The translations under genes and the position numbers were made by a program. DNA of 19,074 nucleotides from Spirochaetia bacterium (lineage in GTDB: Bacteria > Spirochaetota > Spirochaetia > Treponematales > Breznakiellaceae). Of this stretch, positions 5,976 through 10,707 are shown in pieces. The DNA is taken from assembly GCA_026002265.1 (NCBI GenBank), contig BOBG01000033.1, forward strand, positions 1-19,074, in the 5' to 3' direction. Position 1 is the first letter of the stretch; every line of letters starts with the position of its first letter. The notes beneath the pieces are model-generated. The model saw nothing but the letters and a program-made list of their open reading frames with translations, had not been told where the DNA came from and did no database searches.

Positions 5976-7079
5976 ATGAAAGAAGCTGTGCTCATTCTCG
6001 AAGATGGACTTCGTTATTACGGCTGCTCATTTGGCTCTCTCCGATCAACGGCTGGAGAAGTTGTGTTCAGTACCGGGATGGCCGGTTATCCGCAGTCGCT
6101 CACGGATCCGAGTTTTTGCGGGCAGATTCTTGTCTTAACTTACCCTTTGATCGGTAATTACGGTGTGCCGCTTGACCCAAAAACCATGCAGCCGCTTCGT
6201 GACGAATCCGGGATTCCTCTGCATTTTGAGTCGGATCGGGTGCAGGTCGCGGGTTTTGTCGTTTCGGAAGCTTGCCAAGAGCCGAGTCATTTTTCTTCCG
6301 GAGCTTCGCTGGGTGCGTGGCTGAACAAAAACGATATCCCCGGAATCTGCGGCATCGACACCCGTGCGCTCACCATGCATTTGCGTGAACAGGGTGTTAT
6401 GAAAGGCATGATTCATGTTGCCGGAACAAAAGAAGTGAGCTTTGAATCCGGCCTCATTCTGCATCCAGTTGAACGCGTTTCCGGAAAAGAAATTACCATT
6501 TACAATCGGGGGGCAAATACCCGGATTGCGCTTATTGATTGCGGTGCAAAGGCAAATATCCTCCGGTGCCTCATAAGCCGGAATGTTGAAATTACCTGTC
6601 TTCCGTGGGATTTTGACATACGGACCATTGAGTACGATGGGCTTTTTCTCAGCAATGGACCCGGCGATCCAAAATCGTGCTCAAAAACAATCGCCGCGGT
6701 CCGGCACGCCTTTACTAAAGGAAAAGCGATTTTTGGAATCTGCCTCGGGCACCAAATCATGGCTTTAGCGGCTGGTGCGGATACCTACAAACTCCTCTAC
6801 GGGCATCGCGGTCAGAATCAGCCCTGTGTCGAATCAAACACAAAACGCTGTTTCATCACCAGTCAGAACCACGGATACGCAGTCCGGGGCGACAGTCTTC
6901 CGGAGGGCTGGGAACCATGGTTTGTCAATGCAAATGACGGTACTATCGAAGGAATCCGGGCAACGAATGCCCCCTTTTCCGCGGTGCAGTTCCACCCGGA
7001 AGGGTGTCCGGGTCCGCGTGATACAGAATTTTTGATCGACCGGTTTTTGGAACAAGTACGGACGCAGGCGGACTCTTAA
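5976..7079 (+). CDS. carA: Carbamoyl-phosphate synthase small (glutaminase) subunit
   Basis: This 367-residue protein hydrolyses glutamine and channels ammonia to the large subunit CarB for pyrimidine and arginine synthesis. The N-terminal CPSase small-chain domain (EAVLILEDGLRYYG, then GNYG) is followed by a class I glutamine amidotransferase domain. That domain has nucleophile C256 in FGICLGHQ, the SQNHGYAV segment, and H340/E342 in QFHPEG completing the triad. I chose the ATG at 5976 because GGAAAGGA ends about six bases upstream; a GTG at 5961 would add five residues but overlaps that ribosome binding site. It lies 21 bases after lon and is probably transcribed with it. carB is not in the window. 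Confidence 0.95.
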   Translation: MKEAVLILEDGLRYYGCSFGSLRSTAGEVVFSTGMAGYPQSLTDPSFCGQILVLTYPLIGNYGVPLDPKTMQPLRDESGIPLHFESDRVQVAGFVVSEACQEPSHFSSGASLGAWLNKNDIPGICGIDTRALTMHLREQGVMKGMIHVAGTKEVSFESGLILHPVERVSGKEITIYNRGANTRIALIDCGAKANILRCLISRNVEITCLPWDFDIRTIEYDGLFLSNGPGDPKSCSKTIAAVRHAFTKGKAIFGICLGHQIMALAAGADTYKLLYGHRGQNQPCVESNTKRCFITSQNHGYAVRGDSLPEGWEPWFVNANDGTIEGIRATNAPFSAVQFHPEGCPGPRDTEFLIDRFLEQVRTQADS

Positions 7080-7090
7080 AAAAAATTGTA

Positions 7091-7119
7091 TTGATATTAT
7101 TTTCATGCTAGAGTATATT
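7091..7119 (+). promoter_or_regulatory. Promoter of the hemerythrin gene
   Basis: TTGATA (7091-7096) and TATATT (7114-7119) with a 17-base spacer, in an AT-rich stretch after carA. Transcription would start near 7126, leaving a short leader containing AAGGT before the ATG at 7149. This is the best-formed promoter in the window. Confidence 0.65.
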
Positions 7120-7148
7120 ATATTTCAAAATAAATACAAGGTAACATT

Positions 7149-7631
7149 ATGAATGAAAGTAAGTATGCATCAGAGTTGATCTCATGGTCTTCATCATTTT
7201 CTGTGGGAATCACGCTGATAGACGATCAGCACAAAAAATTATTGGAATTAACGAATGCTTTGTTTAATCATTGTGTCGGAAATGATGAGTCAGAACGACT
7301 TTACTTTAAAGAAGTAATAGATGCGGCTGTAGACTATGTTAATCTGCATTTTGCTACAGAAGAAAAAATTATGCAGTTTACAAATTTTCAAGGATTCCGG
7401 GAGCATAGAAAGGCGCACAATCAATTCAAAACCGCGGTAATGGAACAAGTCCAAAGGTTTGAGGACGGGAGACCGTTTAGCCTCATTGCCTTTACCAAAT
7501 TCTTAAAAAATTGGATCTTAACCCATATAGCAGTGTGTGATAAACAATATTTTGAATATTTCAAAAAAATTGCCACACGCAAATCAAATGGGAAACTCAG
7601 CATTACGGCCGGTGATGTACCGCTTTTTTAA
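7149..7631 (+). CDS. Bacteriohemerythrin (di-iron oxygen-binding protein)
   Basis: A 160-residue single-domain hemerythrin. All seven iron ligands of the family are visible: H28 (DDQHK), H67 and E71 (HFATE), H86 and H90 (HRKAH), H126 and D131 (HIAVCD). The usual N-terminal W-S-x-x-F-S-V-G-I segment is present (W13 to I21). Such proteins bind O2 reversibly at a di-iron centre and are linked to oxygen sensing, transfer or detoxification in microaerophiles and anaerobes. There is no attached chemotaxis or cyclase domain, so it is a stand-alone cytoplasmic form. About 29 residues follow the last ligand. It has its own promoter and runs convergently towards the folE2 unit with only 14 bases between stop codons. 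Confidence 0.93.
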   Translation: MNESKYASELISWSSSFSVGITLIDDQHKKLLELTNALFNHCVGNDESERLYFKEVIDAAVDYVNLHFATEEKIMQFTNFQGFREHRKAHNQFKTAVMEQVQRFEDGRPFSLIAFTKFLKNWILTHIAVCDKQYFEYFKKIATRKSNGKLSITAGDVPLF

Positions 7632-7645
7632 CGTTCCGGAATGTC

Positions 7646-8020
7646 TCACTTTTTTGCCTTGAGACCTTTGAAGAATTTAATGGCATTCCAGACTCCAAAT
7701 GATACAAGTCCTAACGCTCCCAAACCCAGTAGCGTTCCGGAAATTGGTTTTAAAAGTGGAATTCCGGATCGTGCTATAAAGGAAAGAATTCCGGCTGTCA
7801 ACGCAATAGTGCCCGGTTTTTTGTCATCAGGATCCTTTGACAGGAGTGAGCCGACTCCGACTACGAGTGCTGCACCGCCGAGTATCATTCCGGGTAAGGG
7901 CGGAAGTGATCCTAGTGCCCACAAAGCGATTCCACCGCCGACACCAAAGACAGCGTTGACGCCCTGTTTGTTTAATTCTTTGAGCGAGGGCGGGGATTTC
8001 CGGGGTTCTAACTCATTCAT
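7646..8020 (-). CDS. Small membrane protein of unknown function, overlapping folE2
   Basis: Counting from the ATG at 8020 (MNELEPRK), 124 residues. I chose this start over one 21 codons upstream because GGAG sits about seven bases before it and it overlaps the end of folE2 in an ATGAATGA arrangement, typical of translational coupling. After a short charged N terminus there are glycine-rich hydrophobic segments at about residues 20-40, 42-60 and 70-112, suggesting three to four membrane helices, and a basic C terminus (FFKGLKAKK). I do not recognise the family. Its context with a GTP cyclohydrolase gives no clear functional hint. Confidence 0.7.
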   Translation of the reverse strand: MNELEPRKSPPSLKELNKQGVNAVFGVGGGIALWALGSLPPLPGMILGGAALVVGVGSLLSKDPDDKKPGTIALTAGILSFIARSGIPLLKPISGTLLGLGALGLVSFGVWNAIKFFKGLKAKK

Positions 8021-8786
8021 TTTTATACTCCGTATAGGCAAATGCGCTATGATTGTGGATACTCTCAAGATTTTCAGCCTCAACCGAAAACCAGGGGAAT
8101 TTTTTTAATTCCTTTACTTTAATATACACATCTCGCACTAAATCTTCAACAAATTTCGGATTATCGTAGGCATATTCTGTGATATATTTTTCATCCTCAC
8201 GTTTCAAGAGCGAATAAACCGGACTCGACGCACAACTTTCAACGACTGCAATGAGATCTTCGATCCAAAAAAAGGGCCCCAATTCAACCTCCACAGTCAC
8301 AATGCCCCGTTGATTATGTGCACCCCGGTCGCTGATCACCTTTGAACAGGGGCATACTGTTGTAACCGGCACCGAAACCGCGACTTTAAAGTGCCGTCCG
8401 GAAGAATTTACCATGCCTTGATAGCGACACTGGTAAGACATCATACCCGGAAATCCCGACACCGGTGCAGTTTTTTCCAAAAAATAGGGGAAATGCACCG
8501 TTCCAAATGCAGCTTCCGCGTCAAGCCGGTTCCGGATTTCCTGCAACATTTCCAAAAAGTGCGGCATCGAAATGTCGTTCCGGTACTGATGGAAAATTTC
8601 AACAAAACGGCTCATATGCGTGCCCTTAAAATGCCGCGGCAGGTCCGCGGAAAGACAAATCTGTGCGGTTGTCCACTGCACTTTATTTAGTTTATCCAAC
8701 ACCCGGATTGGGTACTCAAGTCCCTTGACGCCGACTTTGGTCAAAGGCACTTCGCGCTCGTCCGTTTGATTCTGAACATCGATCAT
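8013..8786 (-). CDS. folE2: GTP cyclohydrolase FolE2 (type IB)
   Basis: A 257-residue member of the COG1469 family. It converts GTP to dihydroneopterin triphosphate, the first step of tetrahydrofolate synthesis and a precursor step for queuosine. Family motifs are clear: KGTHMSRF (54-61) and VTTVCPCSK with C145/C147, where the second Cys is the likely catalytic and metal-ligand residue. DRGAHNQRG with H157 and the WIED segment near 174-177 are also present. FolE2 is unrelated in sequence to FolE and tolerates metals other than zinc, so it is often kept by organisms facing zinc limitation. No Shine-Dalgarno is obvious before the ATG at 8786. Its stop overlaps the start of the small membrane-protein gene by eight bases, so the two form an operon. 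Confidence 0.94.
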   Translation of the reverse strand: MIDVQNQTDEREVPLTKVGVKGLEYPIRVLDKLNKVQWTTAQICLSADLPRHFKGTHMSRFVEIFHQYRNDISMPHFLEMLQEIRNRLDAEAAFGTVHFPYFLEKTAPVSGFPGMMSYQCRYQGMVNSSGRHFKVAVSVPVTTVCPCSKVISDRGAHNQRGIVTVEVELGPFFWIEDLIAVVESCASSPVYSLLKREDEKYITEYAYDNPKFVEDLVRDVYIKVKELKKFPWFSVEAENLESIHNHSAFAYTEYKNE

Positions 8787-8829: not shown

Positions 8830-8993
8830 TTTTTGGGGACAGACCTCGATATTTCTTTCCAACATAATGAGATACTTGAGGTCAGACCTCGATCGGAATT
8901 TTCAATTTACGATATCCGCCCCATAAAAGCTGATTGTAGATCCGGTAGATTCTTCGGAGGACCGGATCCGGGATCGATTTTTGTCCCCAAAAA
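8830..8993. mobile_element. MITE-like element with inverted terminal repeats
   Basis: The left end TTTTTGGGGACA (8830-8841) has its exact reverse complement at 8982-8993. Comparing inward, the match extends imperfectly to about 21 bp (both ends continue to TCGAT), 18 of 21 identical by eye. Inside is a palindrome GAGGTC-A-GACCTC (8878-8890), and CAGACCTCGAT occurs twice directly (8840-8850, 8883-8893). At 164 bp it is too short for a full transposase. A minus-strand frame ending at the inner palindrome (LLWGGYRKLKIPIEV) might be a decayed transposase tail, but I do not recognise it. No target-site duplication was seen. Confidence 0.5.
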
Positions 8994-9045
8994 GAGAGCT
9001 GGAACATACTGTTAGGCGAAATAACAGTCTGGAATTTCTGAATAG

Positions 9046-9069
9046 TCTCCCCGCATCCGTGCGGGGAGA
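9046..9069. repeat. Strong isolated hairpin, 10-bp perfect stem
   Basis: TCTCCCCGCA (9046-9055) and TGCGGGGAGA (9060-9069) pair perfectly around a TCCG loop. There is no T-run on either strand, so it is not a standard intrinsic terminator. The CCCCGC/GCGGGG core resembles a type I-E CRISPR repeat stem, but only one copy is present. It sits in the leader of the brnT/brnA unit, between the cassette boundary at 9011 and the promoter at 9122. Confidence 0.6.
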
Positions 9070-9121
9070 GGAAAAATAATGTGTATAAAAAAGTATACAA
9101 TAAAATATTTTAAAAAAGTAC

Positions 9122-9151
9122 TTGACAAAATAATGATAATATAATTATATT
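9122..9151 (+). promoter_or_regulatory. Candidate promoter of brnT-brnA
   Basis: A perfect TTGACA (9122-9127) is followed after 18 bases by TATATT (9146-9151). The -10 nearly touches the brnT start codon (GTG, 9154), so the transcript would be leaderless or start slightly inside the assumed frame. A perfect TATAAT at 9140-9145 is also present but only 12 bases from the -35. BrnT-BrnA pairs are known to autorepress their promoter through BrnA. Confidence 0.5.
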
Positions 9152-9153
9152 AT

Positions 9154-9432
9154 GTGTATGGAAATTATTGGGACTCAGATAAAGAAAAAATAAATATTTC
9201 AAAACATAAAGTGTCTTTTGAGGAGGCAAAATCCGTATTTTTTGACCCAAATGCTAAAATAATACATGATCCAGATCATTCTATCGAGGAAGAAAGATTT
9301 ATTATATTAGGATTAAGTAAAAAATTAAATTTATTAGTTGTATGTCATTGTTATAAAGAAAATGAAGATATAATTCGGATAATAACTGCTCGGAAAGCAA
9401 CTAAACAAGAAACGGGTCAATATGGAGGGTAA
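9154..9432 (+). CDS. brnT: BrnT-family toxin (DUF497, RelE-like ribonuclease)
   Basis: A 92-residue protein matching the BrnT pattern: YWDSDKEKINISKHKVSFEEA near the N terminus, a central EEERFIILGLS strand, and the conserved RIITARKATKQE segment near the C terminus (R-x-I-S/T-A-R-x-A). BrnT is a small ribonuclease toxin that blocks translation and is neutralised by BrnA. The start is taken as GTG at 9154 because the conserved W lies only six residues in; no Shine-Dalgarno is visible, and an out-of-frame ATG overlaps it at 9152. brnA follows after four bases, with its ribosome binding site inside the brnT end. Toxin first, antitoxin second is the usual BrnT-BrnA order. Confidence 0.88.
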   Translation: MYGNYWDSDKEKINISKHKVSFEEAKSVFFDPNAKIIHDPDHSIEEERFIILGLSKKLNLLVVCHCYKENEDIIRIITARKATKQETGQYGG

Positions 9433-9436
9433 ATTT

Positions 9437-9646
9437 ATGAGAAAAGAATATGATTTTTCAGAGGCAAAATTGAATCCCTATGTAAAGAAGTTAAGGAAAC
9501 AAATTTCAATACGGATTGACATTGACACAATTGAATATTTCAAGAAACAGGCGGAGGAAACAGGAATAGCCTATCAAAATTTAATTAATTTGTATTTAAA
9601 TGATTGTGCTGTTCATTCTAAAAAAATAAATATAGCCTGGAAATAA
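9437..9646 (+). CDS. brnA: BrnA-family antitoxin (ribbon-helix-helix)
   Basis: I start this at ATG 9437, seven bases after GGAGGG (9424-9429), giving 69 residues; an ATG at 9422 in the same frame is inside brnT and lacks such a site. The core SIRIDIDTIEYFKKQAEETG followed by YQNLINLYLNDC is a ribbon-helix-helix DNA-binding fold with an N-terminal beta strand, as in BrnA/CopG antitoxins. A Trp close to the C terminus is common in BrnA. The protein would bind BrnT and repress the shared promoter. It forms a two-gene operon with brnT. The base composition is AT-rich like brnT and unlike the chromosomal core genes. Confidence 0.85.
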   Translation: MRKEYDFSEAKLNPYVKKLRKQISIRIDIDTIEYFKKQAEETGIAYQNLINLYLNDCAVHSKKINIAWK

Positions 9647-9694
9647 TATAAATTGTCAATTGGTTAAATGAAAATATATTCACAAAAAGTTTTA

Positions 9695-9718
9695 ACCCGC
9701 CCGCCGTCCTTGGCGGGT
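9695..9718 (+). repeat. GC-rich hairpin after brnA
   Basis: ACCCGCC (9695-9701) can pair with GGCGGGT (9712-9718); an alternative register pairs 9700-9705 with 9712-9717. There is no T-run after it. It lies 48 bases after the brnA stop and 20 before the attC-like site, and may slow or end transcription of the toxin-antitoxin unit. Confidence 0.4.
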
Positions 9719-9741
9719 GCTTCATAGCAGACTTTTACTTC

Positions 9742-9910
9742 GCCTAACATACGCTATATGCTGCGCCGCAGTAGCGGCTTGGCCGGAGAAAAAACGCAGT
9801 CGGGCTGCGCCCTTTGTGCGTTTTTTCTCCGGCACATTTTTGCGGTTGCTGGAAACCTGCGGTTTCCTTTATCGCAACCGCAAAAATGTCGTATAGCTTT
9901 CACGTTATAT
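9742..9910 (+). repeat. attC-like recombination site of cassette 1, long and branched
   Basis: The outer box GCCTAAC (9742-9748, fitting RYYYAAC) and GTTATAT (9904-9910, close to GTTRRRY) flank a second pair, GCTATA (9753-9758) and TATAGC (9892-9897). The spacers are 4 and 6 bases, which is the R-spacer-L layout of attC. Between them is a large variable structure. A 17-bp perfect stem joins 9782-9798 to 9817-9833. A 16-bp perfect stem joins 9834-9849 to 9874-9889 and is capped by GGAAACC/GGTTTCC (9851-9857, 9861-9867). A small CTGC/GCAG hairpin lies at 9761-9771. The length (169) is at the long end for attC sites. Confidence 0.6.
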
Positions 9911-10675
9911 GCAATGCGGACTAAATTGGTTGGTAAATAATGAAATAAAGAATTTACTGGAAAATGATTGACAAAATTTTTGAAAATATTATAATGGATT
10001 ATATGATAAAAGAAACGGCTGAAAAATTATTGGGAAGGTCTCTTGAAAAAGATGATGGAATAAACATTGAAAAAATAGAAGAAGTTGAATTTATTCTTGA
10101 AAATAAATTACCACAATGTTTAAGGGATTTTTATATATACATTGGAAACATAAAATTATTTACAAAATCATTTGAACAATTTTTTGATATTGATAAATTA
10201 TATTTTAAAAATAAAAAATTGGTTTTTATGGAAGAAAATCAAGGTGTATGTATTTGGGGAATAAATTTATTTGAAAATGATCCAATAGTTTATCAAAACA
10301 CAGGCGATGAAGACTGGTATTCGGAAGAAATACAATTGTCTGAATTTATAAAAATTATGATGTATTACCAATGTGCTAATGGAGATGAAAATACTGAAAA
10401 TATGGATACAATAGAAATTAAAAAAATAATGGAAATATGTAACGGAATGGAAAAAATTGTAGACAATAATCATTTAATAATTTATTGGAAAAATGATGTA
10501 TTATTATGGTATTTTACTGATGAAGAAAATAAAATAATAAATAATTCCGTTATAATAAACGGATTAACTGAAGAAAAAATAAATGAATTTAAAAAAGAAA
10601 ATGGAATAAAAAATAATTAAAACAAGAAAAGCGGCACATAACAGGACTGTATATGCTTCGCCTACAGCCGGAACG
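9905..10675 (+). mobile_element. Integron-like gene cassette 2 (SUKH-like gene)
   Basis: This unit starts after the G of GTTATATGC (9904-9912) and ends at the G of GTTATTT (10675). Its 5' core GTTATATGC is complementary at 8 of 9 positions to GCACATAAC (10634-10642), repeating the cassette 1 geometry. It holds one AT-rich gene in cassette orientation and no CCGG between 9833 and 10667. The 3' site is short, so the assignment is weaker than for cassette 1. Confidence 0.5.
9964..10620 (+). CDS. SMI1/KNR4 (SUKH)-like protein, possible immunity protein
   Basis: A 218-residue, strongly AT-rich gene rich in Lys, Asn, Ile and Glu. The N-terminal half shows a SUKH-like pattern: IEEVEFILENKLPQCLRDFY (an I-E-x-x-E-x-x-L-x-x-x-L-P-x-x-x-x-x-F-Y start), later FMEENQGVCIWGINL, and then DEDWY before a predicted helix. 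SUKH proteins are often immunity factors against polymorphic or contact-dependent toxins, and are also found as lone genes in mobile cassettes. No toxin partner is next to it. The C-terminal part (from about residue 135) has no motif I recognise. The start has only a weak GGA upstream. The family call is by pattern alone and could be wrong. Confidence 0.6.
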   Translation: MIDKIFENIIMDYMIKETAEKLLGRSLEKDDGINIEKIEEVEFILENKLPQCLRDFYIYIGNIKLFTKSFEQFFDIDKLYFKNKKLVFMEENQGVCIWGINLFENDPIVYQNTGDEDWYSEEIQLSEFIKIMMYYQCANGDENTENMDTIEIKKIMEICNGMEKIVDNNHLIIYWKNDVLLWYFTDEENKIINNSVIINGLTEEKINEFKKENGIKNN

Positions 10676-10681
10676 TTATTT
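10636..10681 (+). repeat. Short attC-like site of cassette 2
   Basis: ATAAC (10638-10642) pairs with GTTAT (10675-10679) and CTGTA (10647-10651) with TACAG (10663-10667), around a loop TATGCTTCGCC that can form a further GC-TTC-GC tip. Spacers are 4 and 7 bases. The arrangement resembles attC, but 46 bases is below the usual range and the left box departs from RYYYAAC, so it may be degenerate. Confidence 0.45.
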
Positions 10682-10707
10682 TGACGGAAATTTTCAAGAG
10701 GGATTTT

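What the first reader, a model, noticed from the sequence alone, without database searches (positions are those of the whole stretch)
9011..10681. Two consecutive integron-like gene cassettes without an integrase, in a spirochaete-like chromosome
Seen: GTTAGGCGAA (9011-9020) is the exact reverse complement of 9739-9748, and GTTATATGC (9904-9912) matches the reverse complement of 10634-10642 at 8 of 9 positions. In both units the 5' core is complementary to the start of the folded site at its own 3' end, genes point toward that site, and the content is AT-rich and free of CCGG. Established: this is how integron cassettes join to their attC, and toxin-antitoxin genes with their own promoters are common cargo. 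Inference: this is an integrase-less cassette cluster (CALIN type), placed by a remote or former integrase.
Basis: partly seen in the sequence, partly recalled or inferred. Interest (0 to 1): 0.8.

Follow-up and report, generated by a model that had tools for sequence, protein, structure and literature searches.

The report
Orphan integron cassettes in a spirochaete
Two movable gene cassettes sit alone between housekeeping genes of an uncultured spirochaete; their end-signals match long cassette arrays in related spirochaetes, which seem to be run by an overlooked integrase lacking the part thought essential for the job.

Summary
The two units are real. Cassette 1 (9012-9904, BrnT/BrnA toxin-antitoxin) ends in attC1 (201 bits, E 1.7e-51, under a covariance model built without window sites). 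Cassette 2 (9905-10675, product unknown) ends in a short attC (15.5 bits; E 0.81 genome-wide, 0.041 over 129 kb), good on cores, weak by fold. A copy of cassette 1 in another genus is 93% identical over exactly 9011-9748. The genome holds many related attCs, in arrays and scattered. Both outer junctions look like host DNA around a G|TT, which fits off-platform (attG-type) insertion; no empty site could be tested. No integrase was found in the window's genome (83% complete) or its three genus mates.

The attC type led further. In the window's family, complete integrons carry such arrays, among them Breznakiella homolactica (39 attCs on one strand) and Treponema primitia, a termite treponeme reported integron-free. 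Their integrase, named XerD or phage integrase in databases, lacks about 41 residues that hold the I2 helix considered necessary for cassette capture. New variant of a known kind; recombination is inferred, not shown.

The parts
9011..9022 (+). Left junction and R' core of cassette 1, GTTAGGCGAAAT; crossover inferred between G9011 and T9012; preceded by CATACT, not by an attC tail
   Evidence: array cassettes start after an attC tail; homology to a copy in another genus starts at 9011
9012..9904 (+). Cassette 1 (TA genes plus attC1)
9122..9151 (+). Sigma-70-like promoter site of cassette 1 (11 of 12)
   Evidence: consensus match only
9154..9432 (+). BrnT-type toxin gene, 92 aa, GTG start
   Evidence: PF04365, E 7.4e-28
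9437..9646 (+). BrnA/CopG-type antitoxin gene
   Evidence: PF12441 E 1.4e-8, PF14384 E 1.6e-6
9740..9912 (+). attC1: R'' (TCGCCTAAC, 9740-9748), long structured centre, R' GTTATATGC (9904-9912)
   Evidence: 201.2 bits, E 1.7e-51, held out of the model; DNA fold z -8.7
9905..10675 (+). Cassette 2 (one gene plus attC2)
9968..9995 (+). Sigma-70-like promoter site of cassette 2 (12 of 12); lies inside the first codons of the longest reading frame, so the gene may start at ATG 10003
   Evidence: consensus match only
9964..10620 (+). Cassette 2 gene, up to 218 aa, no family over cut-off (Treslin_STD E 0.017, SMI1_KNR4/SUKH-1 E 0.14)
10634..10683 (+). attC2, short; R' G10675|T10676; followed by host-like TTATTTTGACGG
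   Evidence: 15.5 bits, E 0.041 over 129 kb, 0.81 genome-wide; fold not better than shuffles
8013..8786 (-). Left host flank: folE2
   Evidence: PF02649
10708..11547 (-). Right host flank: cdsA
   Evidence: PF01148

Best explanation
Two integron cassettes stand outside any integron platform, between cdsA and folE2 of a spirochaete of the family that holds Breznakiella. Shown by sequence: cassette ends, attC1, membership of a large attC stock in the same genome, a precise copy of the body of cassette 1 in another genus, no integrase detected in this genome. Inferred: an integron integrase joined circular cassettes at a G|TT in the chromosome, by recombining the folded bottom strand of attC with a double-stranded non-attI site (attG-type), as one two-cassette unit or one after the other. 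Inferred from the family: the enzyme is (or was) an I2-less tyrosine recombinase that in related genomes sits just upstream of an attI-like stretch and of cassette arrays with this attC type. In the window's own genus it is lost or not assembled, so the cassettes are at present stranded, each with its own promoter-like site.
For: attC1 201 bits held out; 126 matches in the genome; up to 98% identity between the window site and array sites. Cassette starts pair with their own R'': mean mismatches in 12 nt 1.21 vs 3.52 for other starts in Breznakiella (34 cassettes), 1.92 vs 3.47 in the window's genome (48 pairs, window not among them). Cassette 1 copy in G007, 93% over 740 columns, from 9011 to 9748. 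Other cassettes of this genome among ordinary genes. I2-less integrase: complete genomes of B. homolactica (39 same-strand attCs after it, 3 elsewhere) and T. primitia. Of 29 loci analysed, 13 have the cassette-start signature within 300 nt after the stop codon and 3 more a same-strand model attC downstream; signature controls: opposite strand 1 of 29, upstream 0 of 29. 0 model attCs in 39 control loci. Model attCs in 116 of 145 family genomes and in 0 of the 5 with a canonical IntI. GxR box to HxxRH spacing 90-98 in 166 of 175 listed relatives, 133 in 117 of 120 listed IntI. Catalytic R, K, H, R, Y invariant in 53 aligned proteins.
Against: No integrase in the window's genome or its 3 genus mates (one search had no positive control); all four are incomplete (67-83%). 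No empty site: the cdsA-folE2 order was not seen in the relatives looked at, with short flanks. attC2 is weak. 13 of 29 I2-less loci show neither signature nor same-strand attC in the sequence held (two are cut 44 and 263 nt after the stop). The model knows one attC type and is blind to others. The G007 copy ends at AAC of R'', not at the far R', so its attC centre differs. Of the three other cassettes among ordinary genes, two (C12, C23) have no clean G|TT at the far end. No recombination has been observed.
Confidence: 0.75

Rival explanations
1. The arrays and the window cassettes were placed by a canonical IntI acting from elsewhere or in the past, and the I2-less recombinase is a neighbour with another role.
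For: Canonical IntI exists in 5 of 145 family genomes. I2 is described as necessary for cassette capture (PMC7790495, abstract and passages).
Against: None of those 5 genomes has this attC type. B. homolactica and T. primitia have arrays but no match over the IntI cut-off. The I2-less gene stands before a cassette-start signature in genomes of 11 genus codes and two further named records.
Confidence: 0.15
2. The locus is what is left of a larger array: platform and most cassettes were deleted; it was not an off-platform insertion.
For: Deletion can also leave two cassettes; short attC2 could be a decayed long one.
Against: The left flank is not an attC tail and the right flank is not a cassette start. 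Other cassettes of this genome lie among unrelated genes.
Confidence: 0.2
3. attC2 is a chance match and cassette 2 is not bounded there.
For: E 0.81 genome-wide; fold z -0.34; 4 of 12 mismatches to its own start.
Against: The model match has the exact ends; the cores fit an array variant; the AT-rich, CCGG-free body ends there.
Confidence: 0.12
4. An inverted-repeat element (MITE-like) rather than a cassette: the 22-nt inverted ends of cassette 1 are transposon ends.
For: 22-nt ends, 20 of 22 complementary; the G007 copy is bounded exactly by the two repeats.
Against: In the arrays the pairs of ends differ from cassette to cassette and match within a cassette; no fixed terminal sequence.
Confidence: 0.04

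Closest known systems
[quoted passage not shown] IntegronFinder)
   Same: Two attCs, no integrase found in the assembly
   Different: The genome is rich in the same attC type and its family has complete integrons with an integrase that the TIGR02249 cut-off does not recognise
attG insertions of cassettes outside integrons (Loot et al. 2024; seen here only as cited in passages of PMC12901181 and PMC12444791)
   Same: Cassettes at a non-attI chromosomal G|TT
   Different: Natural case, two cassettes, spirochaete; empty site not seen
Treponema chromosomal integrons (Wu 2013, PMC3607928; abstract and two sections seen)
   Same: Spirochaete arrays, integrase transcribed toward the cassettes
   Different: That study found none in termite treponemes; here T. 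primitia has one, with an I2-less integrase
Canonical IntI, e.g. VchIntIA (PDB 2a3v)
   Same: Aligns over 2a3v 13-180 and 241-318, same platform position
   Different: 2a3v 181-240 (60 aa) is replaced by 17 aa; separate group in the tree
XerC/XerD/XerA recombinases
   Same: Spacing without I2, catalytic residues, database name XerD
   Different: Tied to an attI-like stretch and attC arrays; separate group from family XerC/D in the tree; extra N-terminal part

Membership tests
Integron gene cassette with attC | R' GTT start complementary to R'' AAC of its own 3' site | tested here: met
   11 of 12 in cassette 1; 8 of 9 (8 of 12) in cassette 2
Integron gene cassette with attC | Folded 3' site of attC type, cassette 1 | tested here: met
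   201 bits held out, fold z -8.7
Integron gene cassette with attC | Folded 3' site of attC type, cassette 2 | tested here: inconclusive
   15.5 bits, E 0.81 genome-wide, fold z -0.34
Integron gene cassette with attC | Unit with precise ends in another context | tested here: met
   cassette 1 only: 9011 to 9748 in G007; right end at R'', not at R'; no copy of cassette 2 in the loci held
Integron gene cassette with attC | Excision and integration by an integrase | not testable with these tools
   needs an assay
CALIN | At least two attCs, no integrase | tested here: met
   assembly 83% complete; my model, not IntegronFinder's; second attC marginal
attG-type insertion | Uninterrupted G|TT site in a relative | tested here: inconclusive
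   no shared gene order in the relatives looked at
IntI integron integrase (for the family's recombinase) | TIGR02249 curated cut-off 265 bits | tested here: not met
   186, 204 and 210 bits for three members
IntI integron integrase (for the family's recombinase) | IntI-specific segment holding helix I2 | tested here: not met
   that this segment holds I2 is recalled
IntI integron integrase (for the family's recombinase) | Adjacent attI-like stretch and attC array | tested here: met
   signature or same-strand attC in 16 of 29 loci; 39 attCs in B. homolactica
IntI integron integrase (for the family's recombinase) | Groups with IntI in a tree | tested here: inconclusive
   own group (36 rows, 93/89); IntI own group (25 rows, 100/100); order with the Bacteroidetes group open

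The most novel reading that the evidence does not exclude
The family of Breznakiella carries a second kind of integron: an integrase lineage without helix I2 captures and scatters cassettes by the same bottom-strand attC route, so I2 is not a requirement for single-strand cassette recombination. Tools that ask for canonical IntI would read such arrays as integrase-less, and the window shows one of its off-platform insertions.
Probability: 0.65. Interest if true: 0.88.

Novelty: new variant of a known kind. Interest (0 to 1): 0.75.

Why it matters
The I2 helix is described as what turned a double-strand recombinase into one that handles folded single-strand attC sites, and as found in no other protein (PMC7790495, abstract and passages). 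A widespread integron family without it, present in named strains with complete genomes, makes that claim testable by experiment. It also means that some arrays counted as CALINs may have an integrase that goes by the name XerD, and it goes against the report that termite treponemes lack integrons (PMC3607928).

Tried and rejected
Rfam has no hit in the window at gathering scores. Empty site by gene order: none of 19 folE2 loci of relatives showed CdsA, and the genes next to cdsA (7 loci) and folE2 (6 loci) that I listed differ; flanks were about 1.5 kb, so this is no test of the site. Integrase remnants in the held stretches of the window's genome: only weak matches, best E 0.29. Bacteroidetes relatives of the I2-less recombinase (5 loci): no R'/R'' pairs by a simple exact 11-nt search and no model attC, so I do not call them integrons. 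Tree to tell loss of I2 from primary absence: order of the groups not resolved; the AU test does not reject I2-less plus Bacteroidetes (p 0.873, likelihood 18 higher than the free tree); two further tests did not finish. Bottom-strand bias: position 11 of the core pair is A.C on top and G.T on the bottom in 33 of 34 Breznakiella and 42 of 50 own-genome pairs (the window's two included), but shuffled partners lean the same way, so only suggestive. The structure model (mean pLDDT 79.9, pTM 0.45) has no helix between residues 289 and 306; its best PDB matches are XerA and 2a3v with high rmsd, domain placement being poor. The gene in G045 looks shortened inside (two profile pieces 4-139 and 240-315; spacing 51) and its 8 kb locus has no model attC; two same-strand attCs lie about 4-5 kb downstream.

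Full report
What was claimed and what is there. The finding names two integron-like cassettes at 9011-10681. The inverted core pairs are at the stated places. The pair of cassette 1 extends to 20 of 22 complementary bases; 60 shuffles reached 18 at most. The bodies have GC 0.29 and 0.22 and no CCGG, against 0.42-0.45 and 12-14 CCGG per kb in the flanks; the two attC sites themselves contain CCGG. Cassette 1 codes for a BrnT toxin and a BrnA/CopG antitoxin. Cassette 2 codes for a protein of up to 218 aa with no family over cut-off; the nearest are weak (Treslin_STD E 0.017, SMI1_KNR4 E 0.14). Both have promoter-like sites, 11 and 12 of 12. The flanks are folE2 and cdsA.

attC. The window is contig C33 of a 2.53 Mb, 381-contig assembly, 82.9% complete. 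BLAST with the first site found near copies in the own genome (up to 98% identity) and matches in 13 of 39 genomes searched, the own one included. From 30 such sites of the window's genome, G007 and G021, none of them from the window, I built a covariance model, R1. Held out, attC1 scores 201.2 bits, E 1.7e-51 over the genome; attC2 scores 15.5 bits with exact ends, E 0.81 over the genome and 0.041 over 129 kb. The genome has 126 matches at E<=1, some of them the two strands of one site. They form arrays (for example on C6, C80, C93) and lie scattered on other contigs. The DNA fold of attC1 is far beyond shuffles (z -8.7); that of attC2 is not (z -0.34).

Cassette logic. In arrays R'' is close to the reverse complement of the start of its own cassette: over 12 nt the own genome has a mean of 1.92 mismatches (48 pairs) against 3.47 for other starts, Breznakiella 1.21 (34) against 3.52. 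In the window cassette 1 has 1 mismatch and cassette 2 has 4.

Ends. Array cassettes typically start after an attC tail...CTTTCAC|GTTA or ...CCGGAAC|GTTA. Cassette 1 is preceded by CATACT, which is no such tail, and attC2 is followed by GTTATTTTGACGG, which lacks the cassette-start pattern. So both outer junctions look like one host site split at G|TT. A copy of cassette 1 in genome G007 (another genus) is 93% identical over 740 alignment columns, from 9011 to 9748, and similarity stops at both ends. The right limit is the AAC of R'', so the attC centre differs there. I found no relative with the same gene order to read an empty site. Three other cassettes of the same genome lie beside an MCP gene (C20), near ispD and a CHASE2 cyclase (C12), and beside an AraC-type regulator and a solute-binding protein (C23). 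Their starts fit their R'' with 1, 0 and 2 mismatches and have no attC tail before them; at the far end only C20 has a clean R', followed by another cassette-like start, while C12 and C23 do not.

No integrase here. Profiles TIGR02249 and PF00589 give nothing in the window's genome, while 14 of 14 control genomes ring. In the four genomes of the genus TIGR02249 gives none, PF00589 one hit (G002), and the family's own recombinase none, the last search without a positive control. All four are incomplete (67-83%).

The family's integrase. In G021 the same attC type follows a 384-aa tyrosine recombinase: 195 nt after its stop, past four GTTA motifs, comes the first of four cassettes, each start matching its own R'' with 1 mismatch. 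Two of the G021 attCs are in R1, so that locus is no independent test of the model. The named record is Spirochaetia bacterium MS502-30; relatives are in Treponema and Spirochaetaceae MAGs and in Breznakiella homolactica RmG30, whose contig length and place equal genome G050; NCBI puts it in Breznakiellaceae. G050 and the window's genome carry the same family code. In B. homolactica (one contig), no site of which is in R1, 42 matches reach E 0.001, 39 of them on one strand in 3,521,956-3,560,488 right after the recombinase (one search lists a few more in that stretch). Wu et al. 2013 (outline with abstract, the methods section on detection and the first part of the results) reported no integrons in the termite-gut treponemes.

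Association. I listed 31 recombinase loci; 2 were not analysed because the script found no reading frame (G046, G101). Of 29, 13 have the cassette-start signature within 300 nt after the stop codon; the opposite strand of that stretch has it in 1 of 29, the upstream stretch in 0 of 29. Three more have a same-strand model attC downstream (L160, L177, L178). The other 13 have neither in the sequence held; two of them end 44 and 263 nt after the stop, and L162 has a partial opposite-strand match of 16.5 bits. A few loci may be one genome under two handles. In 39 control loci (XerC/D, folE2, cdsA, canonical IntI, Bacteroidetes relatives) the model finds nothing at E<=1. Over 145 family genomes, 116 have the attC type at E<=1e-4 under the stricter filters used for large searches; the 5 with a canonical IntI over cut-off (G039, G044, G054, G084, G112) have none. 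R1 was trained on this attC type only, so their own attCs may simply differ.

What the integrase lacks. Against VchIntIA (2a3v) it aligns over 13-180 and 241-318; the 60 residues between are replaced by 17, while a canonical IntI of the family aligns straight through. The distance from the GxR box to HxxRH is 90-98 in 166 of the 175 relatives listed by two searches (7 gave 125, 2 gave no usable value) and 133 in 117 of 120 listed IntI (2 none, 1 gave 182). That the missing stretch holds helix I2 is recalled from the 2a3v structure and fits the account in PMC7790495, of which I saw the abstract and passages: I2 is necessary for cassette capture, and its deletion abolishes IntI1 function. In 53 aligned proteins the catalytic R, K, H, R and Y are invariant and the second H is kept in at least 90%. 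Among the best 120 hits of two searches, source names are XerD, site-specific or tyrosine-type integrase, or phage integrase; TIGR02249 scores of three members are 186-210 with a cut-off of 265, and NF040815 (XerA-like) 205-215 with a cut-off of 220. The tree of 70 rows and 250 columns, from which columns rare in either set (I2 among them) were removed, uses 20 of the 120 listed IntI and 8 of the 175 listed relatives beside the loci; G045, G101 and L162 were left out, and one long Xer row after the first tree. I2-less rows are one group (93/89), IntI another (100/100); their order with a Bacteroidetes group is open, so loss and primary absence of I2 cannot be told apart. Class 1 and Vibrio IntI were not in the sample.

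Mechanism. Most likely the window's pair was joined to the chromosome at a G|TT by an integron integrase, as attG insertions are described (Loot et al. 2024, seen only as cited in passages of PMC12901181 and PMC12444791). Shown: sites, units, ends. Inferred: the act, the strand, the enzyme.

Print. Searches: termite + integron + attC gave only Wu 2013; Treponema primitia + integron gave 3 papers, 2 listed; Breznakiella + integron gave none; at least 3 of integron integrase, XerD, spirochete, cassette gave 36, of which 12 were listed. In those listings I saw no report of these integrons. The library holds open-licence papers only.

Noticed in passing
window 8830-8993: A 164-bp stretch with 21-bp inverted ends (86% complementary) lies 17 bp left of cassette 1; 22 further partial matches occur in the genome, one group as a tandem array of about 172 bp period next to the cassette on C12 (L142:7454-8378). 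A Y1 (IS200-like) transposase gene lies beside a copy (L141:6644-6708 and 6800-7339), which suggests a REP-type palindrome.
   Followed up: partly
G000-G003 (the window's genus): No XerC/XerD-like recombinase rings in three of the four genomes (one PF00589 hit in G002), although 136 of 145 family genomes ring with TIGR02249. Possible loss of Xer in the genus; all four are incomplete.
   Followed up: partly
L187:3490-4536 (G045): The I2-less integrase gene of this single-contig genome looks shortened inside. The contig length, 3,855,671 bp, is what I recall for Treponema azotonutricium.
   Followed up: no
window 9122-9154 and 9968-10003: In both cassettes the -10-like box ends only 2 or 7 nt before a possible start codon, which would give leaderless transcripts.
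   Followed up: no
L076:3776-3971: Between integrase stop and first cassette of G021 lie four spaced GTTA motifs, two of them GTTAATATGTGA, similar in layout to accessory integrase-binding boxes of attI sites (recalled).
   Followed up: no
L051 (G046): attCs abut the 3' end of the I2-less integrase in inverted orientation.
   Followed up: no
G045, G050, G055: These single-contig genomes also hold model attCs far from the platform (3 of 42 in B. homolactica, 4 of 13 in T. primitia, 4 of 6 in G045), so scattered attCs are not special to the window's genome.
   Followed up: partly
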